Source of the DNA: Tubiluchus corallicola
Lineage: Eukaryota; Priapulida; Priapulimorpha; Priapulimorphida; Tubiluchidae
Reading direction: 5' to 3'
NCBI GenBank assembly: GCA_030141605.1
Contig: JAQGDQ010000056.1
Location: forward strand, 62,001-126,000
DNA length: 64,000 bases
Shown here piece after piece: positions 2,201 through 58,414 of this stretch. The number at the start of each line of letters is the position of its first letter. Position 1 is the first letter of the stretch. Both the position numbers and the translations under genes were made by a program. Under the pieces are notes generated by a model that searched no databases, was not told the origin of the DNA, and worked only from the letters and a program-made list of their open reading frames with translations.

Positions 2201-2221
2201 CATACTGTCAGGGCATTGTTT

Positions 2222-2575: not shown

Positions 2576-2732
2576 CTTCTAAGTAAAAGACGAAAGCAAA
2601 ATTTTAAAAGAATAAAGTTCCTGTATTATCTTGTATTCTCAAGAGCTTTACAGTAACGACTCTACAAAGCATTGTAACATACAGCTCTGATAAGATTATA
2701 ACTTATAATTTTATTTCATGTTTTAGCTGCCT

Positions 2733-5087: not shown

Positions 5088-7781
5088 TTATTTTTTAAAA
5101 TCTTCTGTTACTGTTACCATTTTGTCATTGTAAACTCGCAGGATAGCCTCACACACAAACTTATATTGGCCACTGGTCTGTATTAGCATGGGCCTTTGAT
5201 CACGCATTGACATGACAATATCAAGGGGATATATAGGTTCATTTGTTTCAATCAAGCACATTGCTGTTTCCATGGTAATTAGCACACCTGTCCGTCCAAT
5301 ACCTGCGCTGCAATGAACAACAGTAGGCTCCACCATACCAAGCCTGTTTTTGCGAACCTTTTTAACAAATTCAATAAAGTCATAGCTATCACCAGGGACG
5401 CCATGATCAGGCCACGATATATACTGCATCTGTACGATGTGCCTTTCTTCGCCGCTTTTCTCTAAATGAACAAGGGCAAACTCACGGAAAGCAAACGAAG
5501 GTGTTTCTTCTTCCTTTAAACACGTTACTTGCAAGAGGCCATAGTCGACCGTTTCATATAAATCTGGCCAATACTGATGACACTTCACCCGCCCTCTTTC
5601 CACAGTGGCTGTTAACATAACTATTAGTGAACTTTGCTGCTCCCACACCATTTGCCAGAAATCTGAGCAAGTGTTGGGCAATGGTCCCTGTGCCGCAATA
5701 TATCTGTTAACAATACCAGATATTGGTATTTCCATATTGACAAAACTAGCATTAATGTAGCTGCTGGTAGATGTTTTTTGTAAGCAAACTCTGGTCTGGT
5801 CGTATGGTGACACATCCCTGTAACGATTTTTAGTCACATTGTCACCAGTCATTGCGTCATTCATTGCCAAGCCAGGCTTTCGCCGATAAAGTTGATCAAA
5901 CTGCTTTAAAGCAATGCCATTTTCTAAAGTTTCAGATAAAATTCTTAATGACTGCGGAAGGCGATCCCACAAAGGCACATTTTTTGGCACACGGCGTATC
6001 TCTGGAACAGCGTGCACTAAGTCTGCATTATCATCTTCTCCTAAATATACATTTGGTCTAACTGTCAGAACCAATCCAGTAGGATGGCTAGCTGAAGAGC
6101 GGATAAAGGAAACCACTTGGTCATGGCCCATATCTGTGATTTCTCTCCCGTTTATCATCAAGACTTGGTCACCTTCATTAAGTCGTGGCAAACAGATGTC
6201 AGCAGGCATATTCGGCGCAACTCGAGATACTATTACAGGCATACTTTGATCACATCCACCTTTGACATTAAAACCAAACCTACCCCTATCATCTGGCTTC
6301 ATGTGGATGATAACTAAGTTTTCAGTGCCATTCACAGTGTTTGTATCCACATAGCCTCGATCACTTGTACATGATTTATGATCTGTAAAAGGATCACGGA
6401 CTCCTAAGCCAATAGAGTTAGGTCTTGGTAGTTTTTTTGCTTGTTCTTTAGCAAACTCTTGGTGGTCTAATCTGTGCCCATTATCTGTGCTCCATGCTTT
6501 TTTTGGACGAATATAACTATTTACACCAGCTAGCGATATTTTGTTATTATAACTTTCGTATGGACGGATAAAAGCAGCAGTGTTCCTTCCGTTGGTTGGA
6601 ACTAGTCTATCCTTATTTGCTGGTATATTGTTACAGCCATCAGATGTTTTTTCCTCTATTATAACATCTGTTGTATGACCACCAACTGTTCTACGGGCAT
6701 AACGTTTACTCGGGGCTCTGTCAAATGGTCGCTCTGCTGCACGCATACCATCATTTAGAGCTTGCAACTCCGTTTTTCCACTGTACCGTAATTGCGATCC
6801 AAAATACGGCATAAGTCGACGAGTTGGCGGTTTTGGCACGTGCAATCTAAAGAAAGTGTGATGTTCAACACAGGCTTTCCATAGCTCTTTGCAAGACCTA
6901 CAATTCACAATATTGAACACAATCAAACAGGCTGTTACCTCACCCACGTCTTTCCGCAACTGAATAAAAAACTGTTTGCGTTTAAATGAAATTTTAATGA
7001 TTTTTGACCAAGAGAACGTATTAATCTTCACGTTATTTTGAAACACAACCAATCCAACAGCAGTTACACCAAGTTTGACCTCAGTGCCACTATTTTCTCG
7101 TGCTTGATGCAGTTCTACACCATACATATCCAAAAGCTTGGCTTGGTCCAAATAATTGAACTCTGCATCTGCTGGCATTTGGCCTACATGTTGCTTGTGA
7201 AGGAGCTCAACTTCACGTTCAAATTCTTCTGTTTGATTAGGGACAAACCGGAATTCAGACAGATAACCAGAACCATGATCCTCAATATTGTAGTCACCCA
7301 ATTCACTCTGAACAGCATAGCTGGCAAGAAGCACAGCCATGCTATGCGAAACTACTAATCGACCTTCCAAAATGTCCTTCTTCAGCTGCAAAAAGAAGAA
7401 GTAACGTGTGTATTCTTCTTGAAGTTTGCTAGGCTCAGAGACGTAGAATTTTACTCTGAAATAAAACCAGTATGGCTCGCGACATTTAACTTGCTTAGCA
7501 ATTTTTTTATCAGCACTGAGCCATCGTACCGAATCGGGAGCTGGGCAATCGATATACTGTAAACCAAAGTAATCTCTTTCGATTAAATCCAAGTGCTGAA
7601 AAACACTGTCCAGAAGAGTTTGACCTTTCGCACTTCTTTCTATTTGGAATGTATGCTGCGTGTTATCTAAGAAACACACACTACATGTGAGGGTCCGGTC
7701 TGGCCGTTGGTAATGCCGTGCCAATTCTGACTCTCGGACATTATACGTGCCACTTGAAGCTCGTAGCCGAGTCAGTGACAT
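5088..7781 (-). CDS. PTPN4: FERM-PDZ tyrosine phosphatase (PTPN3/PTPN4 type), complete
   Basis: 897 residues, close to the 913-926 of the vertebrate proteins. Domain order by residue: FERM about 30-312, FERM-adjacent region 325-360 (FGSQLRYSGKTE), low-complexity linker, PDZ 487-577 with the carboxylate loop GRFGFNVKGG, and phosphatase 625-885. All catalytic parts are intact: pTyr loop KNRYRD (651-656), WPD loop WPDHGVP with Asp792, P-loop HCSAGIGRTG with Cys824 and Arg830, and Q-loop QTSGQ (868-872). It should be an active cytosolic, membrane-cortex enzyme. The FERM domain binds membrane or receptor tails and the PDZ recruits partners. The ATG is preceded by an in-frame TAA 9 bases upstream, fixing the start. 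Oddity: the whole CDS is one exon. PTPN3 versus PTPN4 cannot be separated outside vertebrates; resemblance is strongest to PTPN4. Confidence 0.95.
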   Translation of the reverse strand: MSLTRLRASSGTYNVRESELARHYQRPDRTLTCSVCFLDNTQHTFQIERSAKGQTLLDSVFQHLDLIERDYFGLQYIDCPAPDSVRWLSADKKIAKQVKCREPYWFYFRVKFYVSEPSKLQEEYTRYFFFLQLKKDILEGRLVVSHSMAVLLASYAVQSELGDYNIEDHGSGYLSEFRFVPNQTEEFEREVELLHKQHVGQMPADAEFNYLDQAKLLDMYGVELHQARENSGTEVKLGVTAVGLVVFQNNVKINTFSWSKIIKISFKRKQFFIQLRKDVGEVTACLIVFNIVNCRSCKELWKACVEHHTFFRLHVPKPPTRRLMPYFGSQLRYSGKTELQALNDGMRAAERPFDRAPSKRYARRTVGGHTTDVIIEEKTSDGCNNIPANKDRLVPTNGRNTAAFIRPYESYNNKISLAGVNSYIRPKKAWSTDNGHRLDHQEFAKEQAKKLPRPNSIGLGVRDPFTDHKSCTSDRGYVDTNTVNGTENLVIIHMKPDDRGRFGFNVKGGCDQSMPVIVSRVAPNMPADICLPRLNEGDQVLMINGREITDMGHDQVVSFIRSSASHPTGLVLTVRPNVYLGEDDNADLVHAVPEIRRVPKNVPLWDRLPQSLRILSETLENGIALKQFDQLYRRKPGLAMNDAMTGDNVTKNRYRDVSPYDQTRVCLQKTSTSSYINASFVNMEIPISGIVNRYIAAQGPLPNTCSDFWQMVWEQQSSLIVMLTATVERGRVKCHQYWPDLYETVDYGLLQVTCLKEEETPSFAFREFALVHLEKSGEERHIVQMQYISWPDHGVPGDSYDFIEFVKKVRKNRLGMVEPTVVHCSAGIGRTGVLITMETAMCLIETNEPIYPLDIVMSMRDQRPMLIQTSGQYKFVCEAILRVYNDKMVTVTEDFKK

Positions 7782-7822
7782 TTTGCTAAGTTAGTCACTA
7801 TGGATAAATAGCATTGCATCAC

Positions 7823-12599: not shown

Positions 12600-13825
12600 C
12601 ATAAATAAACAATAAATAAAATGATTTGAGTAGAGTGAGGTGAGTGTACGACCATACGGTCATAAACACACTCACCTTACTTAAATGAAAAAATTATTGA
12701 AGTTATGCGTGCTTTTGTAGACGACTTAATGAAATTGATGTAATAAAGTAAATTATATTTTATATTGTTTGGTAGCTATTTGTAAAGAAGGAGAGGAAAT
12801 GATTGTATTGGGTACACTATTCCACAATATAACTCCACTGTGCTGTAAGGTATTTAAGCCATACGCTGTGTTAAATCGTGTTTGAAAATAGAGTCCCATA
12901 CTGGAAGACCTAGTATAGTGAGAGTGAACATCTTTGATTAATGTAAAGTAGTTAGTATATAATTCAGGCAACTGCCGGTTATTATACTTATACATGAATT
13001 TAAATAATTCAAGATTATAAATATCTTCTATTTTCAATAAACTAAGGTGTATGTACGATGGTGCTGCATGGTCTCTGCAATTGGAGAAAGTCATGTATTT
13101 AACTATTTTATTCTGAACTGTTATTAGTGGTTGTAATAAGTATTTTTTTTTGTTTGCCACCATGACAACACACAATTATGTCGCCAATTTTAAGTTCGAA
13201 AGTGGAAGAGTCTTGTTGTGAAAGGTTCCTACTGATTAACATATACTTAGTTTTAGTGTAATTAACAGTTAATTTATTTGCTTTCATCCAGTCATCAATC
13301 TTTTTTAGTTCGTTGTTAGTGCGATGTTGTAAAGTTGAAAGGTTAGTAGATGTGAGGAAGAGACTTGTATCATCAGCGAAAAGACGAGTGTTAAAATTAG
13401 TAGCAAGAGGTAGATCATTGATATAGATCAGAAAAAGCAGCAGCCCAAGAGTTGATCCTTGAGGTACACCACAGTTTATATCTAGCAAATCAGAGCATGT
13501 ATTGTTAATAGTGGTGAACTGTTGTCGGTTAGTTAAATAAGATTTAAGGAGTTCCAAGACAGGACCTCTGATGCCATAATAATGTAATTTATGTAGTAGA
13601 ATATCATGCTGGACTGTGTCAAAAGCTTTAGATAAATCTAAGAATATTGCACATGTGAAAAGTTTTTTGTCTAAATTTAGAAGCATATTTTCAACAAATT
13701 CGGAAGTAGCTAACTAAGTTTTGCGTAAACCAAACTGAAATTTTGTTAGTATATTACATGAAGTGAGAAAATTGTTAATGCGATTACAAATAATATTTTG
13801 AATTATTTGATGAATTATTTTTCAC
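12600..13825 (-). mobile_element. 5'-truncated, frameshifted LINE (Jockey/CR1-like reverse transcriptase)
   Basis: Minus-strand frames hold reverse-transcriptase blocks in order: FQFGLRK (about 13733-13753), FLDLSKAFDTVQHD, CGVPQGSTLG, LLFLIYINDLP, then LFADDTSLF, where the catalytic motif is FADD. After these comes the typical C-terminal tail with HYTRSSSMG and LWNSVP. An in-frame stop follows the QFGLRK block, and the frame shifts at a run of T at 13143-13151, so it is dead. The 5' half (endonuclease) is missing. The 3' UTR (12600-12752) contains a strong stem-loop at 12635-12680. Confidence 0.85.
12635..12680. repeat. Stem-loop in the LINE 3' region
   Basis: Left arm GTGAGGTGAGTGT (12635-12647) pairs with ACACTCACCTTAC (12668-12680) with one mismatch over 13 bases. 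A nested 4-bp stem (GACC/GGTC) lies inside the loop. Being at the 3' end of a LINE, it could be the RNA structure its reverse transcriptase bound. Confidence 0.6.
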
Positions 13826-14949: not shown

Positions 14950-15441
14950 TTCCTGTTTTGTTAGTGAGAGTACTATGACTTGAATTGTGCAAACTCGCCA
15001 ACAGTTGTCTCACATTGGTTACATCCTACTTGTGACGCTGGCATTACTTTTATTACTGTTAGCCTCCACCCTATCTGGGCTTCCCTGTCGGAGTCAGCTG
15101 TCAGGTTATCACCTTAGGCTGATGAGTCTGTTGCTATGAAACTCCTATACTGTTTTAAGTAATGGTTTATTTTGGCTAAATCCGTGCAATTCCTGGGTTT
15201 CCTATTACTATTAGTTTTCCTTTTACACGTTAGCTACCGACCTTAACTAATTTTGTTGCTTCCTTGTCGGAGTCAGTTGTAACGTTATCACCTTAGGCTG
15301 ATAAGTCTGTTGCTATGAAACTCCTGTACTGTTTTAAGCAATGGTTTATTTTGGCTAAATCCATGCAATTCTCAGGTTTCCTATTAGTTTTCCTATTACA
15401 CGTTAGCTACCGACCTTAACTAATTTTGTTGGTGTTCTGGC
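14950..15441. repeat. Tandem pair of about 175-bp units (with a third copy at 16640-16920)
   Basis: Units at about 15085-15263 and 15264-15441 are nearly identical (shared phrases: TGTCGGAGTCAG, ATCACCTTAGGCTGAT, AATGGTTTATTTTGGCTAAA, ACACGTTAGCTACCGACC). The segment before them (14955-15040) and the unit itself recur in a more diverged form at 16640-16920. The original repeat is therefore at least 300 bases and was later tandemly duplicated. Confidence 0.7.
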
Positions 15442-17500: not shown

Positions 17501-18417
17501 AATTGTGCAGACAATACTTGTTCGTTATGCAGTATTTATGTAAAATCTGACTCGGCAGTTGAATGTGGGGTGTTAGGACTACTTGTATTCTAAGTGTAAT
17601 CTGGAGATTAATTGCATTTACCACTGTCTCCATTTTTTTTGCAATCTGCAAGAAAATAAAGTAGAAAACCTGTTTGGTTTATTCACCATCAATCATGACT
17701 TTCAATCATATATTTTAACAGACCTACGGGAACATACTACGTTACTAATATTAATTGTTTTCCGATCTACACTGCAGTTTATGAGACTGCTATAGTAGTT
17801 GTTCTTATAACATCCCTAAAAAGTCACATATTAATAAAAATTGAAATCGTTTATGCACTTGAAGTAAATACTGTAACGAAGCCACTAACTTATTGAATTC
17901 CTACCTCTTAAAATGTAAGATTAACAGCTCGATCAAGTAAATTTAAATTAGGTCAGTTGACCCAATAGCCATTTTAGTGTTAACTTCTGTATTAATTAAG
18001 TAGTGTGTTATGTCCTTTCAATAACCTTAATAGTTCTAGACTGAAGTTGTGTTATTTAGTTTAACGAATCGTGCAGATTAGCACTTTAAATGAAATTTGC
18101 AAGAGTTCACATTTTCCAAGAAGTACAATAATAGACCAATTTTAACACTTTGCCATTAAAAATCTGGCTTCCTCAAATTTTGGCACCCTATTTTACAGCC
18201 AAGTTAGTTTAATGATTAATATGGCCCTGGCCACAAACTTTTTTAATGCCTGGAATAGCCCACCATTGTACAATTACTGTTCCTGTTGGTTTGCAGTTCA
18301 TTTATTGTTCTTGGTGCAGTTCATGTGATCTTGCATTTGGAGTTTTTGATTTAGTTGTACATAGCAGACTAATTTCGATTTATTTTTATTTTAATTATAT
18401 TTTGTTTGCATTTTTAG
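17501..18417 (+). other. Intergenic or 5' intron of the zinc-finger gene
   Basis: No exon recognised. The last bases are a good 3' splice site (TTTGTTTGCATTTTTAG, AG at 18416-18417). This sequence is therefore probably the end of an intron that begins at an unidentified 5' non-coding exon. Confidence 0.5.
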
Positions 18418-18422
18418 GTCAG

Positions 18423-21400
18423 ATGTCAAGATTTTTCAGAAGGCCAAAGAATGCTGGTCGCCAGTGTGCTTACCCCTCTGTGATTACTGACAGATTGCAT
18501 CATAGAAAAACCTGCGGGGACTTCAGTGATCTGTCACATAATTACTCATATTGCTCATCAACTGCATTTGACTACAGTCCTCATCGGAATGAAACTCAGA
18601 ACTATGTGCCAGACCATTCACGTTTCACAGCATTTTCTAGTGACAGGGAATACAGTTATCCTAGTAGTTCTGAACAATATTTCTCTGCTGAACGTAGTTC
18701 TACTGGTACATTTAGCTGTAATCATAGCCAAGAAAAATTATACGCGTCTCGGTTCTCCAATGACACGAACAGGTCGCATGAATGGTCTTCTGACAGACAA
18801 AAGTACAGGTGCATGAATCGATACAATGTTGGACAGCAATATAAGCAACGTGAACAAATATATACAGGAGGCAGATCTTTTTACAAGTCCAGGGGGAGAA
18901 AATCTGTCGCTAGCTATGCCAGATATCAAGTTTTTCATGAACCTCAAAGTGCGACAAAATATACCCGGCACAAGGAGACATTTAATACTGACAGACAAGC
19001 ATATAAGAGAGCTGCTAGACTTGCCACAAGGAGTAGTTTTGACAAAAGTGGCCATAAAAATAGGAATTATTCTCCTTTCATTTCAAGCAGAACTTATCAT
19101 AGAAATAATTGTAGAAATAATGGTAATTGTGGAAGCTATCAAACCCCATATTATTCTGAAGGTAATTTCACAAATGAACGAAACACTGATCGCAAAGAAG
19201 ATAATGGGAAATATTCAGCCATGATAAGCTGGACGGAAGGTGATAGAAAACTAGGTACCTATTTGCAAAAAAGCTTACATAAATTTGTTGGAACTGAAAT
19301 TTCCAGCAAAACACATCAAGTTAGTTCATGTTCTAAGGTGCGTCAGTTAAAACCTTGTGAAAAAGTTAGGTGGAACAGCAGAAAATATGAGACTAGAAGG
19401 AGGAGTCAGTCATTTGAAATGAATCTCATAAATTCAAATGTAAAATATCAGTCACAAATGTTCAAAACAGGAGCCCCAGATCACTTATTTCAAAAAACTG
19501 TGGCAGTGTCGCCTGAAACAACCGTGCATGAAAGTGTAATCAAAACTGTCAATGACTGTGAAACCGACACCGAAATAATGAATACTGAAACAAAAATCGG
19601 TGAAGATTCCAAAGGTGAGAAGAGTCAGTCTGAAGATTCTGATTGTAATAACATTGTTAAAATAAACCTAAATACATACAAAATAGTGTCTCAACTGAAT
19701 ACATCAGATTTATCTGATGGTGAAATAATGTCAGATTCTGTGGATGTAGAATCGGATCCCTCAGATAAAGAACTTGTAGATCCATGTGAAAAGAACATTA
19801 ATGAAGTAGCTGAAAAGACAGTTGTAGATATGAAGCTTTACAAAAGAAAAACAGAGGCTAGTGATGCAAAGTCAATTTCTAAATCCGCAAACTGTACTAG
19901 CACGTGTAAAGCAGTGTCTAAAATAGATTCACAAAATTTATCTAATGGTGAAGTACTTGATTTTATAGAAGTCACTATTTCAGATAAAGAACTTACAGAG
20001 GTATTGGCAACAGATGCAGATGAATTTGATTTGGCAGAAGGAAAGGCACCTTGTTCTGCATTTTCTGATGTACAATCAAACATGGACTTATGTGTTACTC
20101 ATGGCCTAAAGGATCAAGGAGTTTCTGTCCTAAATGTTTCTGATTTATCAGATGGTGAGATAATATCAGATTCAGCAGATGCGGAACCCACAATTTCAGA
20201 CGATGAACTTACAGATGTACGCATAAAAAATGTATGTGAAACAACTTTGCCACAAACAGAACATTACACAAATTTGGATACACAGGTCAATGAGAAAAAA
20301 TGCAACAGCATTGCAAAAGTAAAGTCTGGAGTAGATGTATCAAATTTATCTGTTTGTGAATTGATGTCAGATTCTGTAGCTGTAACTTCTAATAGTAAGC
20401 ATTCGAATGCGTGTGCAGATTACGATGTTGAAGTGACATTAGGTAAAAGACAGACAGCCTGTTTCAAAAACTGTGATGTGCAAGCCAAAATGCCAAAAAT
20501 TGTTAGAAAATCAAAAATGAAAAACATTGCGAAGTGTTTGAAATCAAGCCTAACTCATGATGCAGTATCAAATTGTGGAAATGGTCTATTTCCAGAAAGA
20601 AAATGTTTAGTTAAAACGCCGATTAAACATAACCAAAAGTCTGATAACCATAAAGAAGTTTCTGGGTTGTTGTTGTCAAGCAGTGTACATGTTACTAAAG
20701 CACATGAAAAAGAAAACTCTTCCAATTTGATGCAGAGTGAAATTGTGTTAGATTCTGTGAGCGACAGTCCACTGAATAATGAATATGCTATTACTTCTAT
20801 GACATGCGTTGACAAAATTTGCACTAAACAAGGAAACTTATCTTTAACTAACAGCAAGCCATTTTTGCCTGAATTGTCTGATGGTGAAATATTGTCAGAT
20901 TCTGTGAGTCCTGCCTATGACACCAATTCTGATGAAGAACTTTCTGATGCACAAACTAAAAAGGAATCAGATTTATTTACCAGTTCAAAACAGCAAAAAA
21001 ATAAACCCATGATCTCATGTGTGGTAACTCCAGTAGTAGCAGCAAAACTAGATAATTTCTCTAATTTACAAGAGAATTCAAATGAAGACTATCAAGTGCA
21101 TTTTTCTGAACTGAATAAAAATGAATGTGACATTTCCTCTAGAAAGAGTGAGCTGACAGCAGACATTATTACCGTTCAGCAGGACTTGAAAAAAAATTAT
21201 CATTTGCATCGTAGTAAAGAGGACGGAAGTAGTAAAAGTTTATTTAACTGTCAGAAAAGTACTGCCTTTATTTCACATGCCAAAGAAGATCAGAAGAATA
21301 TCTCAGAGAATATTATTACCACTCTCAAAGAAGAAAAGACATTAAGTCCTAATGACATTGAACTTGGTAGACAAGACAACACTACAAATTTTGAACATGG

Positions 21401-24400
21401 GTCAGCAATATGTGATAAGCTATCAAATATCAAATGTAAACTGAAAGGCGAAGCTGTCGTAGAAATTGAAGAGAAGGGCATGATTACAGAAATAGCTAAC
21501 AGAAAAATAGGTAAGCTTGACTCTTTTTCGCAAATGGAGGAGTTTTCAACAGACAAGAAAGTAGAAGATGCAGCAGAGAAAACACCGAACCAGCCGGTTG
21601 ATGTACAAGACGGTACTACAAATTTTGAACGCACATCAGCAACATATGATAAGCAGTTGAATAATGAGTATAGTGTAAGATGCGGAGCTGTTGTGGAAAG
21701 CGAAGAGAAGAAAACGGATACAAAAATGAGTGAAGCTACTTCAGCTGTAGCTAACAACATCTATAAAAAAAGCACTGAGTCATCAAAACAATCTGATAAT
21801 CAAGGCACTGTTGCAAACTTCAGTATTACCAAAAGAAAATTTGAAAGCAGCATTGATGATGAAAATGTCAGCAATGAACAGGCTAGATGGTCTCAGCCAA
21901 ACGACACCTGCATGGTTGTTTCTGCTTGCCAAAAGAAGCGTGTGCCAAAGGCCAGAAAAAGTTTTCCTCCCACATTTGCAAATAAAATGGCAAACTGTTC
22001 AACTTCACCATCTTGTATTTCTCCTAACGTTGTTCCTTCCTCAGCTTTGCAGTCCAATAAACATCAATTAGCACATCCATCAGCAATATTGAAAAGCCAT
22101 GCCAGTATTCCAGCAAACGGTAGTCTTCATGTAAGAAAGAATGCTCAATTCTGTAAGCAACCATTATCAACAAAAGTCGATGATAAACAAGTTTCAGCAG
22201 ATGAAGGGGCTTCCAATGAGCCAGGAATTTTTATAGTAGAGGGAAGTCAAGGCAGTCTGTCAGCTGTTACTAAAATGGGTGAAACAGGCACAGAAAAGAA
22301 GGGCGCCTTCATGGTGAACAATGCTTCTCAAGGAGGGCCTGACAAGGACATAATATATGGTTTAACTAGTGATGAGTTCAACATGGAAGGACAAATATTT
22401 GATGATAATACTGTTGCTGATGAATCGATGAAAGCTTCAACCAACAGCAGTCATTGGTTACAGTCTTTGCAGAAGTGGAAAAAAGGTGCAGATTCTAGAA
22501 CTTCTGAAATATGCCACCACTGTAAGAAAACCATTGGATCCGATCATAGTTTTCTTATCTTTCATTCTTTTACTGAACATCCTCAATGTGAGGTACCTTC
22601 CCAGTTTCCGTCAAACGGGCAAGTAAAGTATTCACCAGATGCTCGTCTTCAGTTCTCCTGCCGATATTGCAAGATGGTATATAGGAATATTAACAAGTTT
22701 TTCTTGCATTGTAGATCCCATACTGGTGAATATAAATTTGTGTGCTTGATTTGCAATTTTCCTGCTATGTATAGAGATGAAATGATTCATCATTTTAAAG
22801 AAAAACATAAAGGAGAAAATTTTCAAGAAAAATCTTTTAAAGATGTTTTTGAGTATCAGGGAACTAAGGGACCTGAGTTGATAGGTTATCAATGTGGTGG
22901 CTGTGGTGTAGTCAAGCTTAACTTTGATAATATGAATGAGCACGTTAATGTTCACCACAAGGAAGTTCAACCAGTAGAGCGGGTAAATATGAATAGAAAT
23001 ATTAATATTCCTGCAGTTGCGGGATCAGCTTCTTTATTGCCTGTCCAACCATCGATAAACGCAACTGCAAAGTCTGTTACAGTTTCAACGTTTGAGTTTG
23101 TAGCCACAAGCGTGCCAAAAGAAACCAGTCGATTATCATGTCCAAGGGTTGACTCTAGCAGACTTACTAGGTCAGATTTGAAAGCCAAGTTATTAACAAA
23201 CAGTGTGAAGCGAGAGATTTCAAAGGAGATACCAGACAATGTTTTTGCCAGCAGAAATACAGTGAAGAGCAATCCCAGTCTAAATAAACTTCATCAAAAA
23301 CCTGCTGGTGGTCTTGCTTCAGAAAATGATGTACCAATATTTACCACAAGCACTCTTCAAGAATCGGCTACAAGTTTGCTTTCAGAGAAGAGTATTGAAT
23401 CAGACCAGTTTGCGGGAAGTGCCCGTCTGGGAATTGTTAATGTGGCTTCAAAAAATAGTGTGCCGTCATCTGTGACAAAAATTTGCCACCAGTCAGAGAG
23501 TTTGTCTTCAGAAAATGTTTCTCAGCCAGCCCGATTTACAGAGTGTACTCACCAAGAAATCATAAGTGTGTCTTCAGGAAGTGTGCCTGCATCTTCAAAA
23601 AATATTCCGGAATCAACTGCTAAACAAATCACTGCTATGCTTCCACATGCTAAAGTGTCATCTCCTGCTACGAGCGTTCACCTGGGATTATCATCTTTGT
23701 CGTCTGAAAAAGTACATACAGTTACAAACGTAAATATCCACTCAGCTGTGCAGAAAAGTTTTCCCTGTGGTCTGTGTTTAAATTTTGATGCAGTTGGTGA
23801 GCATAACTTTAAGCTTCACCTTCTTTACTGTCATGGGTCAGTCCAATATTTTAACTGTGCTTTGTGCAGTGCTAAATTCCAGGGAGTCGGCAAACTAACA
23901 AATCACATGTTGGCTAGGCATGAAGCTCTATTATTTAAAAAGTCCGACCAACCCAGGTTAATTGAAGATATTTCTTCTCCTTCGAGGGATGAAAAGGAAA
24001 AACCTTTGTTGACTGTCTCAGATTCATCTAATCTGGAAAAACCAAGTGCAGTAGATCTTTATCCCTCTTTAATTATACAGGAAGAAAAGAGTTCAAGTGA
24101 AATAACTAGTCCAACAACCACATCAAGGGGAGAAGCCGCTCCTCCGAATTCAAGTAAAGAAATTACTTCGTTCGGCAATATTGGTGTTAAAGCTTCAACA
24201 ACAGAACAAGTAAATGGCAAATTTAGTTGTCTTCCTTCTGATATATCGAAAAATGAAGAGTTTATAGCAAAATCCAAATTGAGACTCCAAAGCCTTATTC
24301 AGCGTGTACAGCAGTCAGCTAATGCTAACGTGGAAGAATCGGTCTGTAGTTCTGCAAGCTGTGATAATGAAGATATTTACAAAAATCAAAATATCACACA

Positions 24401-27400
24401 GAGCAGAAAATCCATTGATAGTGAATGTAAGTCACGAGAATTTGATGCTACCTGTCACACAGAATGCTTAATCAGAACTGACTCGAAGCGTCCACTTAAA
24501 GAATCTGGATTTGTTAAAACTGTAGGAGGCAATATTGCTTCAGAAAACTCAGCGCATTTTCCAGTTCGAAATCATAATTTGAATAACACCATAGTAACTG
24601 ACAAAGATGTCAAAACTTCCACTGGTGCTGAGTTTAATGCAATGTATGCAAACAAATATCGTCTGGACGTTAAAATGTTAAAAAATGGCAGCGAGATACT
24701 AAATTCTTCAAATAATTCTGTCTTTTCAGCTCATACCACCACCTTGTCTACAGTTACATCGAAAATTTCTGGTAAATCACTACCTCAGACAGAAGAAAGC
24801 CCATGTTTAACTACAACAATTTGTAGACCAGGAAATTCCATTTCTGACTGTACATTAACATGCAACTTTCCCACAACAACAGCTCATTGTGAACTGGTGT
24901 CATCATGTAGTGAACCAGCAAATTCAATGCCAGCTTTAAGACATAACTTTTCCTCAACAACAGCACAGTGTGAACTGGTCTCACCTAAAAGTAAACCAGC
25001 AGAAGCAATTCCAACAGAAACAGCAACAGTGTCATGTAAGCAAGATATGTTCACTTTTAAAGAGAATCAATCAAATGGCTTGATTGTTGCCAGTACATCT
25101 GGGCTGCTACCTATCGCTTTGGTTCCTGCAACAACAATTACCAAGGATAACGTAAGAAATCAGTTAACTGCATTTGTTCCCACTGTGGTAACTTCTGCTG
25201 GAAATTGTAATGCTTTATCTGTGGCACCAAAGTGGCCTACCAATAGTACAGAAAAAAAAGTAGAACACGTTAGTGCCACAGATCCTTCCACAATATCATC
25301 TTTGAATGAACGTGATAAAGCATGTAAACTTTCGGAAGTGCGTGAATTGTGGAAGCGCATTTCTAGACGAAGTTCACCGTGCAAGGTTGAAGGTACATTT
25401 TTCAAGTGTATTCTGTGCCCTTTTGAGACAAATGAAGATGTTAAATATCGATCTCACCTCACAAGAGCTCATCCAAACAAAGCTCAAACTGAGTACTGTT
25501 GTCCGTATTGTTACTTTGTAGCAAAAACTGTAGATGTATTAACTAACCACATTGTTGATATTCATGCTACAGCTTTATGGTTTTGTAAGCAATGTGAAGT
25601 TGGATTTCAAAGTGATGAAGAAGCAGTCCTTCACTTTATTCAAGTACATAAGAAACGACCCAATCAAAGCGATATATTGTTTCCTCGCTCAAATATTTGT
25701 CATGTTATAGTGAACTATTTTGGTAACTTGCGTGCTATGTTCCTTGCACCATTAGAGTGCTGTTCAAGCACTTTTTGGTCAGTGATAAGTTTTTGTGATC
25801 ATTTAAGACGCTGTCATCCTACGGCATCTTTTCTGTGTGACAGATGTCCAAAGAATACAACAGTATATCCTGGTGATGACTATGTAGACCATTTATATTC
25901 CCAGCATTGCATTGGAGAGCATCAGTGTTTTTATTGCAAATATGCAGCTAAAGTGAGGAATACTATGATACGACATCTAAAGATCTCTCACCCAAGAAAA
26001 CCTCTAATATTTTACACTCGAGGTTATTCAGTCAATGAATCATTCGTTTGTGTGCCTAAGTCATTTGCTGTGTTTGCAAACCTTAAACTTGGAGAAAGAC
26101 ATGACAACATTGGTTTAGTTACCTTGCACCAAGAGACTGCTATGACTACATCTGCAATAACAGCCGTTAGCCCTTCACTGTCTTTACCTAAACCTGTTAC
26201 CACAACAATCATGGCAATGTCAGCATGTTCAAGTCCTTGCGAAGTTTCAACCTTGATTTGTCCCAAGCCAGCTGCTGTTCAACAACATGCCACATTGAGA
26301 AACATCCTGAAACTACCAGCAAAGCCATTTATGCCAACTGCAAGTGCACAGCAAATACAGCCAAGTGGAACAGTCACAATGAGATTACCAGCTAATGATG
26401 TAGGAAAGGGACTGCAAATGCCTGCCACCAAACTCGATGGCAATAGTGGTTATAAAATGTTATCAAATGGAAAGTTGTTTAGCCTTGTATCAACAGGTGA
26501 ACCACTAAGGCTAATGGCTGTTCCAGTTACTGAAACACAGGAACACGCTTTTCCTGTACAACAAATGCTGGCTGCATCACTGAATAACCCAATTGTACAA
26601 AATCGTCTAGCTATTCCAGGACAGCAAAAAATCTGTACCAACATTTCTGTACCTGTAGCAAGTTTTGTAAACAATATTAAATCTGATAGCAAACTATCGT
26701 TTTACACAACTGGTCTGGTTTCACAAGTTATACCACAATCTGTAGCATTGAGAACATGGAACAGTGGGACGAAAACATGCAGTGCAACAAGCGATGCATG
26801 TGGAATTAAAGTTGTTGATGTATTCTCTGTAAACAGGTCACCACCTAGCAGCAGTGCTAATTCTAAACAGCCGGCATCTACATTATCTTTAACGAATTCG
26901 ACCATGAAAGCACGATTTGCATCCAGTAAACTTGCAACATTGCTTGGACCTGCATCGGGTGCTCGCACTTATTTAACAGGTACAGTAACTGCATCTGAAA
27001 TAACAACACAAATGCAAGTTATGACACCTTCTGTAAAGATTACTGCAGCATCACACACTACCAGTACTACTTCTCTGAGCTCTAAACATCCTTCTCCTAC
27101 TGTCACTTCTATGCCTGTAGCATTAGCATCCAATGGAGCCACTAGTAGTACATCGAGCAGATTTTTTGAAAGATCAGCTGTGTCATCTTTTCCATGCCAA
27201 AATTCACTGGAACCTACATCTTGTGCAAGCAAGCCTATAAAAGTAGAATGTCCATTGGAACCACTTTCTACAGAGCAAATCAAAACAGAGCAGCTATCTC
27301 CAAGTGGGTGTGACATTAATAGTACCAACGTTCGCGAAACTAGAAAAAGTGTGAAATGTCCAAATGATGTTAGTAAGATGATGAGCGAAATTGAAGTGCT

Positions 27401-29305
27401 TCGTAAAAAGTATAATGTGAATATCTATGCAACTGATGACAAAGGAAATCCAGTTATGGGAGTGTGTGCAAGAGACCCGGCTGAACCAGCAATTGATTAT
27501 CAAAAACCATTAAATGTTCCTGATGAATATAGCAGTGTGCATTCTTATAAATCTCAGCAACATGCGCCCGAGAACATTACCGACTTTGCTTCAAATAGTA
27601 TTTTCCCTTGTGGCTTTATTGGCTGTTGGTTTAGCGCATTGAAACTTTCTGAACTTGCCACACACACCAAAAAGCACCACAATGACAGTATTTCATACCC
27701 TTGTGGCATATGTGACAAGGAATTTTCTAGCGTGATAAGCTTGAATCATCACCATGCTAAAACACACAAGCACAGATTATGTGAATGGCCACTTTGTTTT
27801 GAGACTTTTGTTAATTCAAGTGCAATGGCTAGTCATCACAGTCTAGCACATGAAAATGTACTAGCTGGTTCTGAAAAGCATGTCGGTAATTCCTCAAACG
27901 CAAAATATTCAGACTCAAGGAAGTCATCATTGGCTATGTTAACAGACCTAACTCCTAGTTTTAAAACAAAAGGAATGGCATTTCCGCAACAAAAAGTGAT
28001 TCCACAACAAAAACAAGTTGATGCACCAAGTTTAGCTCCTATTAAGTTTAAATCTTGGGATAGCGCCCTTTTTAAATCTAAGAAAGGATTTCTTTCTTCA
28101 GATAAGAAAATGACTAACATATGTGCACAGGCTAAGGCGGCTGTGTGTGTGGGTAAGCAGAAATCCGATCTTAGCCCAGAAAAAATGAAAAATATTACGG
28201 CTGAAAAGCCATTGCCTAAACTGATATGTGCTAATTTAAAGAGTACACAGATGGATTATGCGATGTATGGTATCCCGAACTTGCATATATTTAAGCAAGT
28301 AATTAAATGCTTGTTATGCAATGACTACTACACTAAGACGCGCCTGAATTTAATAAGACATTTGAAGAATAGCCATCCTAATTCTGCTGTTTCTGTCAAG
28401 GAAGTATGCCGAATGCCGCCAGATACAAAACGATTGGTTAGAAAGGCTACTTCAGCAGATAGCAAAACTAATGAAATAAATGTGGATACAGTTTCAAGCA
28501 GTGATCATTCAGTATGTGCTGTTCCAGAACAATGCCTGAAAGCTGCCTCGGAGAAACCTTCGGTTAGTCAATCATTGTGTGATGTTATCACTTCCAAAAG
28601 TGTTTCAGTATCTACAGCATATAGCAGTATAGAAGCTGCCAAAGATTCTTGTGCAGTCACGAAGATTCTTTCTTCTGTTTGTGAAACGGCTTTTAAAAGT
28701 AGCAAAGAAAAGGGCAAAGGAATTGCCACAGATAATAGTGGTACTAATGAAGAAGACAAAGCAGTTGTCAGAGGTGGTGATGGTAAAGAAAAATTGTTTG
28801 ATAACGTTGCTCAGCCTGTTAGTTTTACTACCACCACAACATCTGAAGCACAAAACCATTCCTGGCATAGCTTGACCAGCAAAGATGTAGATTTTTTTGC
28901 TTCGAGTGGTAATGTTTTCTCAGGGGCATCTCGTAAGATGCGCGCAAGGACTGCAACTGTTTCTTCAAGTCTTAGCAAATGCTCTTCTGCTGTATCAACA
29001 TGCTGTGTCAGCCCACTGAAAAAACTTGCACTCAACTCAACTAAGAAAGCAGTTAAGCAAAAGAAAGTGCAGGGAGTCAAACAGAAGGCTAACATGTTGA
29101 AGAAGAAGATACACATGCCACCTAAAGCATCAGACGTCGCAGATCCTAATTTCGTCACTAGAAAATACGGGATTCCTTACATTTATGTGGCAAATATGGA
29201 ATATCATTGCTTGATTGGCGGATGTCCATTTGTTGCAGATGATGGGAAAGTGTTGCAACTTCATGTGAGGCATGTTCACCCAGGTGCTACAGAACTTCCT
29301 TGCAA
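18423..29305 (+). CDS. Zinc-finger gene, coding exon 1 (10.9 kb)
   Basis: One uninterrupted exon encoding residues 1-3627 plus two bases of the next codon. The start MSRFFRRP is chosen at 18423. The frame is open upstream to 18246, but a strong acceptor ends at 18417 and the upstream translation is hydrophobic and intron-like. The exon ends at TGCAA|GTAAGC, so the apparent stop at 29307 is intronic. Confidence 0.88.
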
Positions 29306-32300
29306 GTAAGCATTGTTGTAGTAATACATAGTTATTTTCTTACTGTTTGTATTCAGTATTAATTTTTTTATTTTTGCCTTAAGAAAATTCATAAAAATTA
29401 TAAATGTAATTTCACGCACAAAGTTGAATGTAGCATTATTGTGATCACTTGAAATGAGAGGACTTTGCCTGTATCACACCTTCTTGTAATGTCATTAAAT
29501 CTAGCTTTCTCACCTCATGTGGAGTAGTTTACATATTATCACCACGATTTTCCTTCTGGTTTGATATCTGTTTGTTTTGTGCTAGATACTTAACCTCTCT
29601 GTGATCCTTTTGTGAAATCCTGTTCATCATCATCCACTGTTTTCTCTGCACTACCACCATACTGTCTTGATTTGCTGATTTGCCATTTTATTTGACCTGT
29701 TAACCTTAACTTGTTCTTCGTTGCCGTCATCCAAAGTGAATTAGTGAATGGTCTATGGTTGACCTTATTACTTGGCCCGTTATTGTGATCTTACCATTAT
29801 CAGCTTTCTCGACATATTTACTTTTGCCTTCACTCAAGTTCCTTTAAAGTTTAAACAAGCACTATTTTTAATGTTTTTATTGATGCACAGTTAAGTTTTG
29901 TCCTGGTAATTTTGGTCCGAGGAAATTTTGTTACCGGGAAAATTTGTTACTAGGAATTTTTTGGTATAGGGGAATTTTAGTTATGGGAAAATTGGGTACA
30001 GGGAAAATGTCGTACTGGTAAATACAGTATTGGCGAAGTATTATCAAGCATTTTGGCACAAGGTGAAAAATTTACGGAACATAATTGGCGCTAGAAAAGT
30101 TTAGTATTGGAAAAGTTTATTGAGTAGTAAAGTTTGATACAGAGAAAGTTTGGTGCTATGTAAATACCTTATATATGACCTACTTGAAAAAGTTATAGAA
30201 TTTATTTTGCTGCATTTGTTTTTATTTGATTGTTTGTTTGTCTGTTTTTGTTACTTCGTTCAGTGTTGTTGTTGTTTGTTTGTTTCTTGTTCGCTCCTTT
30301 GCTGTGATCATCACCGTCGTTATCATCATCATCGTCATTGCTGTCATCATTGTTGCTCTTCTTGTTTTGTTGTTGTTATTGTATATGTTATCTTCGTTGT
30401 TGCTGCTGTTGTCATTGCCCTTGTTGGTGTTCTTTGTTTGTTTCTGCTTGATGTAGTTGTTGTCAACATCATTGCTGTCATCATTGTTGCATTTATTCTT
30501 TCGTTGCTGTAGTTGCTGTTGCAGTTATTTTGTAATGAGATATAGAAATGCTCTTCTGTTTTGTAACAAATTTTCCAGTATTAAACTTTGCTGGTGTGAA
30601 ATTTTTCCTGTTCCTACCATATCTTCTTAGTACCAAAATTCCCTTGTGCCACGCTTTCTTAGTACTAAACATCCCGGGTACCATATTTTCCTTCTACCAA
30701 ACATTCCTTATAGTAGATTTTCCTAGTGCCAAAATTTCACAATTTCCCATGCACTAAAAATTCCTTGTACACCAAATTTTTCGAGACACGTTACGGTACC
30801 CAACTTACTTGAACCAAATTTCCTACATCGTTATAGATTTCATAAGACTTTGGATTTTTTTGGGGGGTCTTACTGAACACCAATAAACCCTGGTAGTATA
30901 AAGTTTTTAAAAATGTGAAAAAAAATGCTCTTTTGAACAGTTGATTTTTGAGTACGTTCAGCTAGATCTCACAGCCAAGTAGCATGATCAGATTTTTAAT
31001 TGAGTTCTAATAAGTTGTTATCTCGACTTTGCATGTAGGTTGAATTCGTGACGTAGTGCATCTGAAAATAGTTCTTAGTGATTCATTGATTTTATAGATA
31101 CTGTGACGAAGTGTGTGGATCTGCAAGTGACTTAATTAAACATCTTGGTCTTCATGGACGTAAACTTTCAAAATGTGGTTACTGCAGGTAAATAGTATCT
31201 ATTTCCGTTATTGTAATTTGATACCTTACTTTATGTGATAAAATTGACAGTGTGTGTTTATGAAATTAGAATATTTTTCCTACTGTACTATTTGGTCTTA
31301 TTTGTAGGTTCTGTGCTGACTCTCCGTTTAAAGTACAGTGCCACTGCAATACAGTGCATGCGAATAAAAGACCTGAGATCATTGTACTCAGGAATTTGCC
31401 TGGTAGTGTACTGCAATTACAGCTGCCTAGTAAATATGTGTCTGTTCCTCAATACCGGCAGCCATTCACATATACAATCAAAGTGGATATGTGCAGTAAC
31501 GATCAAGCTAAAACACCAGATGGATCCAAATCTGTAGATGTAGCCAAGCAATCGCGGGACATTAAAGATGCCCAGCGTCCAGAAAATAAACATGTTATAC
31601 ATAAAAGTGTAATGGCTAAAGCTATGTCCAACAAAATAAAGCTTGAGAACGAAGATATTGCAGGTTGCAAGGTTTCAAAAGATATAGTATCAAAGAAAGC
31701 TGTAAATAAAGCCAATGTGGCTGATAAAACAGTTGATATATCTCCGTCACTTAACTGCAAGGTAGTTGTCTTAAAAACTGTAAGTGAAAACACTTCTCTT
31801 GTAAAAGAAGTTACGTCGCCTATTAAAGAAATTCCCGAATTGACTCGTTCTAAATGTGTTTTATCAGTTGACCAAATTTTGGCAAATTCTGATTTGTATT
31901 ACTGTTGGCTTTGTAAGCGTGCATATCAAAGTTCGCGAATGAGGCGACATATGATGCAAAGTCACTACCACTATAAGCCTTACCAGTGTGGTTACTGTGA
32001 CTTTGATGGTTACAATAAAGTGACTGTTGTTAGTCATTGCAGCAGTCATCATCCAAAAAATGCTCTGCTTATCATCAGTGACCTGCATGAGAGCAAAGAT
32101 TTTAAAAAGCAGCTAATGTTAAACGACATTGCTGCAGACATGAAGAAGGCGAAATGTCTTTGGTACAACAAATGTGATGAAGAAAAAAGAAAACTTGTGG
32201 CAGAGGCTAGGGAAAAAACTCCAGGATACTTTCGAGGAAGTTTGAAGACAGATCAGCTGGCAGTTGTGGAAAAAAAAGGTTGCAACAGGGATACGAAGAT

Positions 32301-44700: not shown

Positions 44701-47700
44701 AACAAGTCACAAGAGAGTAGCACAAAAGGCACAAAAAATCACGCAAGAGATTTACATAAGAAATTTAAAGAACAGCAAACTAAAATGAAGTCAAGTGAGA
44801 TTCTCTTAAAAAATAGCAACTTTTTAGAGGAAAAATACAAACAAAAGTTTAATAAATATGTTTTGATAAACAACTTTGAGTAAAATTTACAAATGAAGTT
44901 TCTATAGTCAGTAGTTGGTAATAAATATGTTTTGATAAACAACTTTGAGTAAAATTTACAAATGAAGTTTCTATAGCCAGTAGTTGGTTATAACGACATT
45001 AAGCAACAACTGCGTTAGTGATTACAGGAAATGCATGAAACAAAGTACAGAAAGGTCATGAAATTACAGTCAAATGTGTGAAAAACTTATGATGCAATAC
45101 ATCAGGCAACAAAACTTAAAATAACTTCAATAAAAGACAAATGGTCTAAACGTTTTTTCTTCTGTTTGCCTAACCGATAAAAATGCTTTATGATGCCTCA
45201 CAGAGTAGTCTAAAGTAAGTATGAAAGAAAGTTCAAACCTACCCAAAAAAGAGGGCAGGTAGACACATGCATTACCTGTGGATGCCGCACCTGTTTTCGA
45301 CAAGGTTGTGCATACTGTAGTTCGCTAATAGGGGCATCATCAGGGCAAGGTATTGCATTTTCCTTTAAATCGTCACTGGTTCTGTTCGACGATGACTGAG
45401 AATCACCGCTAGTGCTCTTTTCTGATTTGTCTTGTGACGAGAGTGAACAGACAGATGAGTCAAGATAAGATTTTACCTAATGAACAGCCAAAAAATCTAC
45501 TAAACAAATACTAGTTTAATGCATGGATTACAGTAAAGGGAAATATAAAATTCAAATTTTGAATTTTTGTGTTGTGTAGCAAAGAAATTTTTCATGTGCT
45601 GCAAAGCATCATTAAAAGCTTTTCCAGTGTGAATTCAGACTGAATTGTGCCAAAAGCAAGAATAGAAAATTGCATCTTGAATGTGTGTACTGGCTAGGGG
45701 AGCAAAATTTCTTAGCTCAGCATGTTCGAAAAGCTAAATGTTGCAGAGTGCAAAGAACCACTTGCTACCAATGTAATACTTGTCGAAAAATGCTTCAACT
45801 GAGTTATCATGCTCAGAATACAGTAATAATAATGATTAATTATAGTCAAATTTATTTTAAATTTGTAAATGTGCAAGAAAATAAAAAGGGCAACAACAAG
45901 GAAAAAGGAAGCACAGTCTTGTTAAAATCCCTAAGTTCTGCACCCAAAACATATGCCCTACCTGGTATACGCTACATCCAAGTTTACTTACGCCTCTGTG
46001 CCTTTCAATCCAATTAAAGCTATTTATATTATTTAACTTTAAACAATAACAACATTTAAAAATAAAGTGAAATTATTACTATAATAACTAAAACAGACGT
46101 ATTATTCCTCTGTGCGATGGATGCAATTTACCTTGAAATTTGACAAAGAAGAGATCAAGTCATCTAATTCCTTTGTAGCAGTAGAAGTTTTCTCTGGTAT
46201 ACTAAAAATAAAGAGACTCAATTAGTAGACTAAGATTCTGAGTGTGTGCTACTTGGCTCTACATATTTTGGCAGCTCCAACAACCCGATCATTTTTGACC
46301 ACTTTTCCTTTGAACGAAATGTCTGGAGCTAACATGGTCTTACTGATGACTTACTTTTTGAATCAAGAACCAGTAAAAGAAAAGGAAAACCTTCTCATTT
46401 TCGGGACTTTTCCTTTGTTTTTTTTGGCAAAATTAGACTTCTCGTTTTGTTCGTGGAACAGCCAGCAATAACAGGATGATATATATGATGGCGGGTGGTG
46501 CAAGCAAAGATTCCATGTTATATTTTAGATTTTATGAGCAGTTCACAGTTGATTATTTTAGGTTTGTTCATACAAATTCTAAAAATAATAATGTTCCAGT
46601 GGAGATTCGTGAAGGGTCTTGGAAACAGTGTGTTTAAGAACTACAGGTTGCACAGCTAACTGGTTACATCATTGATTATTTTCTGCCACATTGCTGCTTA
46701 ATACAACATGTCTATGCAGTCGAAGCCTGACAATACAACTTTCACATCGTATTAAGCAGGTGTGTTAATATCCATTACATGTATTTCCTTACCACTGTTG
46801 AACTACTTTCCTAATAAGCACGAGTGACTTTTAGCTGTCGCGGGTTTAAGTTTGACTTTCATTTGTTTAATAAAGCAAACAGTTCGGCCACGACAAACTT
46901 TGCAAAAAACTGTAACAGTAATCATTCTATAATCATGTAAAAAGCAAATATTTTGCATGATAATCAAGAAAGTAAATATTTATCATATTACCACAACCAA
47001 AAGTGAAGCCATTTTAGAAATTTTACAAAATAAAATTAAAAAGTCACCTGTCTTCCTTTACTGCACTTTCTAATTCATCAAGTAAGCTTTCTACTGTTGG
47101 CCTCTGTTCAGGAGTAGTCTGTCTATCACTTGAACCTGGCAAAAATCATTATACTGTTATAACTAATAGTGCATGGACTGAATTAAATTATGTGTGCATT
47201 TACATCATTACGTCAGCAATAGAAAATTTATGCTGCGCGTAAACCCCAATATATGTTAGCAAAATCACTATAAATAAATATTTAAACTAAATTATACAAA
47301 ATTCTTAACTGAACTCCTGAAACATTTTACACATGCACACTTCTGCAACATCAACCTGTTAAAAAAATTAAATGAATTGTACAACAATATTTTGAGAAGA
47401 CAAAACAGACATAATTCATTTAATTTTATAACAAGTTACTGATGCAGACTTGCTCTCTGAAAAACATGCCAGGAGTTCTATAAAGATGTTATGCTGATGA
47501 ATAGTCTTTTGGTGACGAATTCAAGAAGTTCGAAGCATATCCTGAGTTTAGACATCTAAGCATCACTCCACTTTGACCAGTCCGAAATGAAATTGGCAAC
47601 TTGAGAGAGTTATTGAGAAGTACTGAGAAGCATTGGGAAGGTGCAACAGCGCGCTAAGCTGGAAGGCAAATCTTTCAAGCAGTGCTATCCATTTTTGCGA

Positions 47701-48131: not shown

Positions 48132-50633
48132 CTGTAAAAAAAACAGAAGTACATATAATGACTTTAACACTAAAACATGTATATATATACAAAAAAAGAA
48201 TTTATAATCCTTCCAGGCTTATAATTATTTTAAGTTTGCTCTGATTGGTAATCTTTCTAAGGTGGCACCACATTGACATAATATGCATAAAATGCAAAGT
48301 GCCATGTTAGTAAAATTAGCGCATTTAATAAAGTTTTCTCAACAAGGTAGCTGACTAGATGACCAACCGGTCTTTCACTGCCCTTTTCACAATACTTTTT
48401 AAACTATCAAATGAAATGCACGACATCAATATATACGTATCATAAAAAACTATTTTTATGAGTGTGCATAAAGATAAAAATAGTGATTATGTTAACAATA
48501 AGTGTATTAAATTTTTACTTTTGGTAAGAAATGGTTCGGAAATCATATATTCACAGGTTTCTGTCTGCTTGTTTGTCTAGATGATACCTCAAAAATGTTC
48601 CACACGTTTTAATTTTATTAAGTTTACTTTATTTGTTTTCATATGAAGTGTTAATGTTTCGTATGTTCAATGAAGTGTTAATATATTTGTTATGTTTTGT
48701 TTAATAACTATACAGCAATAGTTGTTCATGATTGGTTATCTTAAACTACAAAAGGAGTGAGACATAAAATGTATACAAGGCCGGCAGGACTATTGAGAAG
48801 CTAAAATAGCAATGTTTAGCCATAGAAACTTTAATTTGCAATATTAATTTAATATTTAATTTAATGTTCCTTACATTTCAGTATTGTAAGTACGTACCCA
48901 TATAATTCCATAAAAGAACTGCATAATTACAACATTACAAATGCACTGTTCTTGAATTCTTAAAATTTTGAACACAGCTTTTACAACAACAAAATATTTT
49001 TATGTATGCTGAGATGACAGCTGGTTCATCAAAATTGAAAATTGCCATGACAGCAGAATGGTGTAGAGAGTCAACGTTCATAGTAAAGTTGCGTACAGGT
49101 TGATTCAGTTGCTGCTATCTATTAAGCAAGCAACTGCCTATTATGAACACGAATTAGCGCAAAGACTGATTCATGTGTTTAATTTGTTTATAAATTTTGA
49201 CTTGGTTATTATACCACACCTCATTAAAATCGTAGTAAAGTATTAAAAGATTGAATGTTTGGTGCTTATTCCGAAGTTACCATGTGTGACACCAATAAAG
49301 TAATTCTTTCATAAGAGTAGCATCATTGAGACATCCAAAAACTGTGAAGAGGATGAGCAATCAAGTAACAAGTGATAAAAACATCAATTTGCCAGGAAAT
49401 TTTGTTTTTGATAGGAAATTTGCTAGGAATTTTTTAAAAAATAAACTGTTCTACTTTGCAAAAAAATGCTCAGTGACTTTGCTAAGTTTTTTTATTAGTG
49501 GGCGTTTTCCACCCATGCAGAACTAACTACTTTCACAGAGGTTTGTACAGGCATTTAAATGATCATACCCATGCAAAACGCATGCAGTTGTCAACAGCAG
49601 AATGATTCACAGCAGTAGATTAGAAAAGCAACTTGCGGGTGGTTTTATGCAGAAAATTACTGCTTGGATAATGCTGCCTTTAATCTGTAAATAACTGAGT
49701 TTTTCACAGTGACATTCATTAAGGAACTTGTAGACCAGGCTCAAAAGAACTAATTTAAGAATTTTCACCATTACATCATATTCACTTTATAGGATTCATT
49801 TCTGTCTAGCACACACACACACACTTAAACAACTGTCACATCTCAGCTATAATAAGTCCCCTCAAACTACTTATAACCAGATTACACTGTAATTTTATTT
49901 GAGTGATGGGTAATGTGGGCACTCCACATGACATACTTTAACTGGTGTATGAAAACACTACATAGGGGATGTTCCTGCTTGCCTGGCATCCCTAGTGCAC
50001 TATAGGGCCGTGTGTTGCAGTATACGGCGAGGTGGTACATAACACCATGGTACAACGCGATGTGTAACAATACCATATCCTAATTAGTTTAATAAACATT
50101 ATCTCGTTACACAAGCATTGCCTGGTTGCAGATTCTTATATCAAATTGTATCATTTGTATGCATAACATTTTCGTTCTGTGATTTTATTATATTTTTAAC
50201 TGTGTAAAGCTGACGAGTCATTAGGAGAAGTGAGGATAATAAATAATATTATATTATTATTATTGTTATTATTACAATTAATATACTTTATTTTTTATTT
50301 AATTATTAAATGCAGTTCTCAGTTTTAGAAATCAGACTCAGAATAAATGACTAATTGCAACAAAACGTTACTGGCCGAGTTTACCAGTTACGTGTTATGC
50401 ATTTATTAAAACACGTGCTTTACTTGAAGTTTTAGCTACAGTACTATGTTTGAACCATTTCTTCTGCTGCTTCAAAAATATTAGGGATATTGTCAATATA
50501 CAGGCATTACATAGAAACTATAATAAAGATTTTATTTCTACTTCTCTTTAGTGCTGAACTATCACATTTTTATATCCCTGAAGTTAAATGAGTATATGTA
50601 GTACATTTAAATGGTTGTCAGAACTGTTAGGCA
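48132..50633. other. Upstream of the first visible paxillin exon; no exon recognised
   Basis: Likely paxillin intron. No LD1-like reading (LDxLLxxL) with splice sites was found. At 49388-49430 two or three units of AGGAAATTTTG/AGGAAATTTGC resemble the sub-repeat of the foldback element at 29896. An ATT-rich microsatellite lies at about 50245-50275. Confidence 0.4.
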
Positions 50634-57921: not shown

Positions 57922-58102
57922 CTACCAATTGGATACGTTGCATATAAGTTGCTGTCTGCTTACAGCATGTAGAGGGCATTCGAGCAAATAATGGGTAACA
58001 GTTTCAGTATGATAACTCATGAACTTTTTTACCAATAATATTACAACTAGAGTCTTTTCAGCTATGCATATTTAAATGACAATTAAGCCGAGGAAAACCT
58101 AT

Positions 58103-58414
58103 TATAGGTTTTACACGTCAAATGTAGACACAGGAAAGTTCAAATGTGACTTAGGTAAGTCAAATGTAGACATAGGAATTTCGAATGTGTTTTGGTAACT
58201 CGAATGTGACTTAGGTAAGTCAAATGTAGACATAGGAAATTTGACTTGACATGTGTCTACATTTGACTTTCCAAAAACGCTTAAGAATTCTTGAAAACCA
58301 TTGTTAACACATCTGAACTACCTAAGTCTACATTTGAGTTACCACGACACATTTGAATTACCTAAATCTACATTTGAGTTAACGTAGGTCTACATTTGGC
58401 ATGTAAAACCTATA
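58103..58414. mobile_element. Foldback element with sub-repeat arms
   Basis: The ends TATAGGTTTTACA (58103-58115) and TGTAAAACCTATA (58402-58414) are perfect inverted repeats. Each arm is a short array of a roughly 20-bp unit: left AAGTCAAATGTAGACATAGG and variants, right the reverse complement CTAAGTCTACATTTGAGTT. About 312 bases, non-coding. Just outside, AAAACCTA (58094-58101) mirrors the left end again. Confidence 0.8.

What the first reader, a model, noticed from the sequence alone, without database searches (positions are those of the whole stretch)
29896..30835. Foldback element built from inverted arrays of about 20-bp units in intron 1 of the zinc-finger gene
Each arm is itself a degenerate tandem array, the two arms are reverse complements, and the loop is microsatellite-like. 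Transcribed within the pre-mRNA it could form a hairpin of about 250 bp and be a substrate for RNA editing or small-RNA production. The sub-repeat unit also appears at 49388-49430.
Basis: partly seen in the sequence, partly recalled or inferred. Interest (0 to 1): 0.6.

Follow-up and report, generated by a model that had tools for sequence, protein, structure and literature searches.

The report
Old foldback transposon in an intron
This is a worn copy of a non-coding jumping-gene family whose two ends are mirror-image stacks of 16-letter units; it sits in an intron by chance, and nothing in the sequence suggests that the gene uses the RNA hairpin it could form.

Summary
The inverted arms are real. 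They belong to one copy (window 29882-30830, 949 bp) of a dispersed non-autonomous foldback transposon family in this 343.5-Mb animal genome. The arms are degenerate arrays of a 16-bp unit, not about 20 bp, and flank a low-complexity loop that other copies share.

Mobility evidence: asymmetric tips (5' GGTGCGCAG, 3' CCTACATTC) occur at 152 and 173 places (controls 2 and 4). Of 33 tip pairs, 16 have 9-bp target-site duplications matching at 7 or more positions (178 matches in all; shuffled pairs 87.5±8). One insertion lies in another repeat, of which about 37 paralogues run uninterrupted through the site.

The 9-bp duplication and asymmetric tips resemble Mutator/Foldback elements, Tm1 above all. 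No transposase was linked, so the superfamily is inferred.

The copy lies in a genuine intron (29306-31097) of a C2H2 zinc-finger gene. The RNA can form a hairpin of 154 mismatched arm-to-arm pairs, but its arms pair no better with each other than with other copies' arms (-132.5 against -135.5±21 kcal/mol). Hairpin-specific maintenance is unsupported. The 49388-49430 'unit' is chance-level (E = 1.8). A new member of a known kind.

The parts
29882..30830 (+). whole foldback element copy (949 bp), same strand as the zinc-finger gene
   Evidence: tip alignment with other copies; profile hits
29882..29890 (+). 5' tip GATGCACAG (family form GGTGCGCAG)
29891..30165 (+). left arm: degenerate tandem array of the 16-bp unit (AAATTTTGGTACNAGG-like)
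30166..30550 (+). low-complexity GTT/ATC-rich loop (middle domain), present in other copies
30551..30821 (-). right arm: inverted array of the same 16-bp unit
30822..30830 (+). 3' tip CCTACATCG (family form CCTACATTC)
29873..29881 (+). expected 5' target-site copy GTTTTTATT; decayed, 5 of 9 against 30831-30839 TTATAGATT, not significant in this copy alone
   Evidence: sequence; family-level test
29306..31097 (+). host intron (gtaagc...tatag) of the C2H2 zinc-finger gene; the element fills about 53% of it

Best explanation
An old, partly decayed copy, lacking the interior of the longest copies, of a non-autonomous foldback-type DNA transposon family. Shown: related copies (more than 150 recognisable tips) are dispersed, with left-arm and right-arm arrays of a 16-bp unit around a non-coding middle, fixed asymmetric tips and 9-bp target-site duplications; paralogous empty sites exist. 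Inferred: copies were moved by cut and paste by a transposase supplied in trans, probably of the Mutator (MULE) type, for which the repeated arm units would be binding sites; the copy in this intron inserted by chance and is spliced out with no dedicated function, and its RNA hairpin is a passive consequence of the arms.
For: Dispersed arm matches. Shared anatomy in copies of about 0.9 to 1.8 kb. Tips at 152 and 173 places, controls 2 and 4. 9-bp duplications: 16 of 33 tip pairs at 7/9 or better, total 178 against 87.5±8, and the signal collapses when the register is shifted by 1 to 3 bp; perfect examples L031 GTTATAGCC and L014 ACTCTCACC. Empty site: the joined flanks of L061 align through the junction in L032 and in about 37 further paralogues. 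No coding capacity beyond low-complexity frames was recognised (by inspection). Own-arm and foreign-arm pairing are equal.
Against: No transposase was linked to the family: seven MULE-domain matches in the assembly, none flanked by its arms. The window copy's own target-site duplication is not recognisable (5 of 9). The genome's species is unknown, so no orthologous empty site could be examined. Matches between copies are mostly 70-83% identical, so no recent activity is seen.
Confidence: 0.93

Rival explanations
1. The hairpin in the pre-mRNA is functional: an ADAR editing or small-RNA substrate kept for the zinc-finger gene.
For: Sense-strand position within an intron with clean splice sites; MFE z -2.3 with arm-to-arm pairing.
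Against: Own-arm pairing is not better than pairing with foreign arms; this copy has the lowest own arm-to-arm identity of 20 copies (0.611); the longest uninterrupted helix is 19 bp and the rest are 10 bp or less; other copies such as L031 form longer helices (32 bp).
Confidence: 0.04
2. A foldback element of another transposase superfamily (P element as for Galileo, Merlin, hAT), not Mutator.
For: No MULE transposase is linked to the arms; foldback anatomy has arisen in more than one superfamily (PMC3573991, PMC4079207).
Against: The 9-bp duplication and asymmetric tips fit Tm1-type Mutator/Foldback elements (PMC3169594); Galileo-type and hAT elements duplicate 7-8 bp (own knowledge).
Confidence: 0.3
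3. A local chance inverted duplication of a minisatellite, not a mobile element.
For: The arms of this copy are degenerate (61% identical over 247 columns).
Against: Many dispersed copies with the same ends, 9-bp duplications and empty sites.
Confidence: 0.01

Closest known systems
Tm1 Mutator/Foldback elements of root-knot nematodes (PMC3169594)
   Same: Asymmetric outer tip motifs just inside 9-bp target-site duplications; arms made of a variable number of short tandem units; non-coding middle in most copies.
   Different: Other tip motifs (CGGTTAA/CCTACCC), 13-15-bp unit of other sequence; Tm1 arms average 93% identical within an element, here about 70%; Tm1 has a transposase-coding form, none found here.
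Tetris, foldback transposon of Drosophila virilis (PMC4079207)
   Same: Non-autonomous, tandem repeats within the arms, 8-10-bp duplications, repeats amplified into satellite arrays (here C1650: about 54 copies of a 32-bp dimer).
   Different: No sequence comparison was made; arms up to 1.7 kb there, about 0.3 kb here.
Galileo (P superfamily) of Drosophila (PMC3573991, PMC3688188)
   Same: Long internally repetitive inverted arms; multiple transposase-binding sites in the arms are a precedent for the function proposed for the units.
   Different: P-type transposase and 7-bp duplications (own knowledge); here 9 bp.
TU elements of sea urchin (Liebermann 1983, cited in PMC4079207)
   Same: Long inverted ends with an outer domain of short tandem repeats (own knowledge).
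   Different: Duplication length recalled as 8 bp; sequences not compared.

Membership tests
Foldback-type DNA transposon (structural class) | Long inverted ends built of short tandem units around a variable middle | tested here: met
Foldback-type DNA transposon (structural class) | Dispersed copies with fixed ends, target-site duplications and empty sites | tested here: met
Mutator (MULE) superfamily | Target-site duplication of about 9 bp (8-11) | tested here: met
Mutator (MULE) superfamily | MULE transposase in an autonomous copy with the same ends | tested here: inconclusive
   Seven MULE matches in the assembly, none flanked by the arms; two of them examined with 7 kb of context; absence is not shown
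Tm1 | Asymmetric tip motifs inside the duplications | tested here: met
   GGTGCGCAG and CCTACATTC
Tm1 | Tm1 tip and unit sequences (CGGTTAA, CCTACCC, CGATTCAGTATCCGC) | tested here: not met
   Tips and unit read here differ from those printed in PMC3169594

The most novel reading that the evidence does not exclude
The intronic hairpin of this copy is transcribed and edited or diced, and so affects expression of the zinc-finger gene.
Probability: 0.05. Interest if true: 0.45.

Novelty: new member of a known kind. Interest (0 to 1): 0.27.

Why it matters
It gives a well-bounded foldback family (tips, 9-bp duplications, empty sites) with the same plan as nematode Tm1, and shows that its left and right arms are distinct lineages with no sign of homogenisation within copies. 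Knowing this prevents a common mistake: reading an intronic transposon hairpin as a regulatory RNA. The arm unit also makes up at least one local satellite array, as reported for Tetris.

Tried and rejected
(1) Unit at 49388-49430: right-arm profile E = 1.8, rejected. (2) Autonomous partner: MULE matches carry no family arms nearby; L096 has inverted flanks of its own that are unrelated; L077 encodes an IS256-like protein and looks bacterial. The longest tip-to-tip copy (L064, 2661 bp) has only low-complexity open frames. (3) Species identification through COX1 failed: no match in the assembly. (4) The window gave no Rfam match. (5) Text search for the unit sequences in papers gave nothing. 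Only 5 of 19 copies found by arm similarity keep a recognisable 5' tip, which suggests very roughly 600 arm-bearing copies.

Full report
Observation. The two arms are there and are inverted. Local alignment of 29883-30165 with the reverse complement of 30553-30830 scores 45, against 15.5±2.5 (maximum 27) for 500 dinucleotide shuffles of both arms. Tandem Repeats Finder gives a 16-bp period in the left arm, and both the direct repeats and the inverted repeats are listed. Profiles built from the arms of other copies, with the window copy left out, hit the left arm at E = 4e-40 and the right arm at E = 9e-28; each also hits the opposite arm on the other strand, at E = 1.8e-15 and 9e-18. The supposed extra unit at 49388-49430 has E = 1.8 and is not a member.

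Host gene. The large open frame (18216-29309) ends in ...LPCK at a gtaagc donor (intron from 29306), and an acceptor tatag ends at 31097. The join reads CKYCDEVCGSASDLIKHLGLH, a complete C2H2 finger (sequence, frame; the join was read by eye). Pfam gave no match for the long frame itself, so 'zinc-finger gene' rests on these patterns. The element lies in the sense direction and fills about 53% of the 1,792-bp intron.

A dispersed family. Each arm finds about 40 places in the 343.5-Mb assembly; only 40 candidates are scored, so these are lower bounds. Alignment of whole loci shows the same order in many copies: left arm, low-complexity loop, in longer copies a further non-repetitive stretch, then right arm. 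Bounded copies measured tip to tip run from 390 to 2,661 bp, most between about 0.95 and 1.8 kb. The window copy, like L002 and L003, lacks the non-repetitive interior.

Ends and insertion. Copies begin GGTGCGCAGTAAGTTTGGTAC and end GTACCAAACTTTCCTACATTC; the two outer motifs are not inverted repeats of each other. Within 3 mismatches these 21-mers occur 152 and 173 times, with 2 and 4 matches for the reversed controls. In 33 copies with both tips, the 9 bp on either side agree at 178 of 297 positions, against 87.5±8 when partners are shuffled (maximum 118 in 2,000 shuffles). Shifting the register by one to three bases removes the signal, and 16 of 33 copies agree at 7 or more of 9 positions. 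L031 (GTTATAGCC) and L014 (ACTCTCACC) are perfect. Copy L061 lies in another dispersed repeat: its joined flanks align through the junction in L032 and in about 37 further places, which are paralogous empty sites. The window copy's own duplication has decayed (GTTTTTATT against TTATAGATT, 5 of 9).

Classification. A 9-bp duplication with asymmetric tips and arms of short tandem units is the plan of Tm1, a Mutator/Foldback family with a MULE transposase (PMC3169594), and resembles Tetris (PMC4079207). The tips and unit sequence differ from Tm1, and no transposase was linked to the family here. I therefore call it a foldback transposon, probably of the Mutator type, without filing it as Tm1. The Galileo precedent of multiple transposase-binding sites in such arms (PMC3688188, title and start of abstract) makes binding the likely role of the units; this step is inferred.

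Is the hairpin used? The RNA of the window copy folds at -217.3 kcal/mol, against -201.4±6.9 for 20 shuffles (z -2.3), with 154 arm-to-arm pairs and helices of at most 19 bp. If pairing were maintained locally, a copy's two arms should fit each other better than arms of other copies. They do not: mean duplex energies are -151.0 (own) and -150.1 (foreign) over 20 copies, one-sided p = 0.48; for the window copy -132.5 against -135.5±21, rank 23 of 38. In sequence, left arms resemble left arms (0.75) and right arms right arms (0.74) more than own left resembles own right (0.70, equal to foreign left-right 0.70); the window copy has the lowest own value, 0.61. The arms were thus probably already distinct before the family spread. 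The hairpin is best read as a by-product. Editing and small RNAs cannot be tested with sequence alone.

Arm unit as satellite. C1650:61180-62921 holds about 54 copies of a 32-bp unit that is a dimer of the arm's 16-bp unit, comparable to what was reported for Tetris. Which came first was not tested.

Noticed in passing
window 58099-58417: A second, unrelated and much younger foldback family: about 306 bp plus flanking TAT/ATA, arms of about 20-bp units (TCAAATGTAGACATAGGAAG), ends AGGTTTTACACG...GTAAAACCT, probably a TA-type target. The best 40 copies are 91-96% identical and 955 first-look candidates exist.
   Followed up: partly
L094 (C1650) 1680-3422: Satellite-like array of about 54 copies of a 32-bp dimer of the arm unit, close to another array of 32 copies of a 27-bp unit.
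   Followed up: partly
L012, L009, L007, L017, L018: One-armed derivatives: the left arm without tip, joined to another repeat (TGTAAGTGTTTACAGCATGTAAATAAATG) and a different interior.
   Followed up: partly
window 5088-7790 (-): Single open frame of 900 codons for a FERM-PDZ-tyrosine phosphatase (PTPN3/4-like), intronless: retrocopy or single-exon gene.
   Followed up: no
window 12753-13713 (-): Fragment of a LINE-type reverse transcriptase in two overlapping frames.
   Followed up: no
L077 (C1597:147786-148019): Open IS256-type transposase frame of 400 codons that looks bacterial: a possible contaminant or symbiont contig in the assembly.
   Followed up: no
window 15079-15431 and 44850-44993: Two-copy tandem duplications of 179 bp (90%) and 69 bp (97%).
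   Followed up: no
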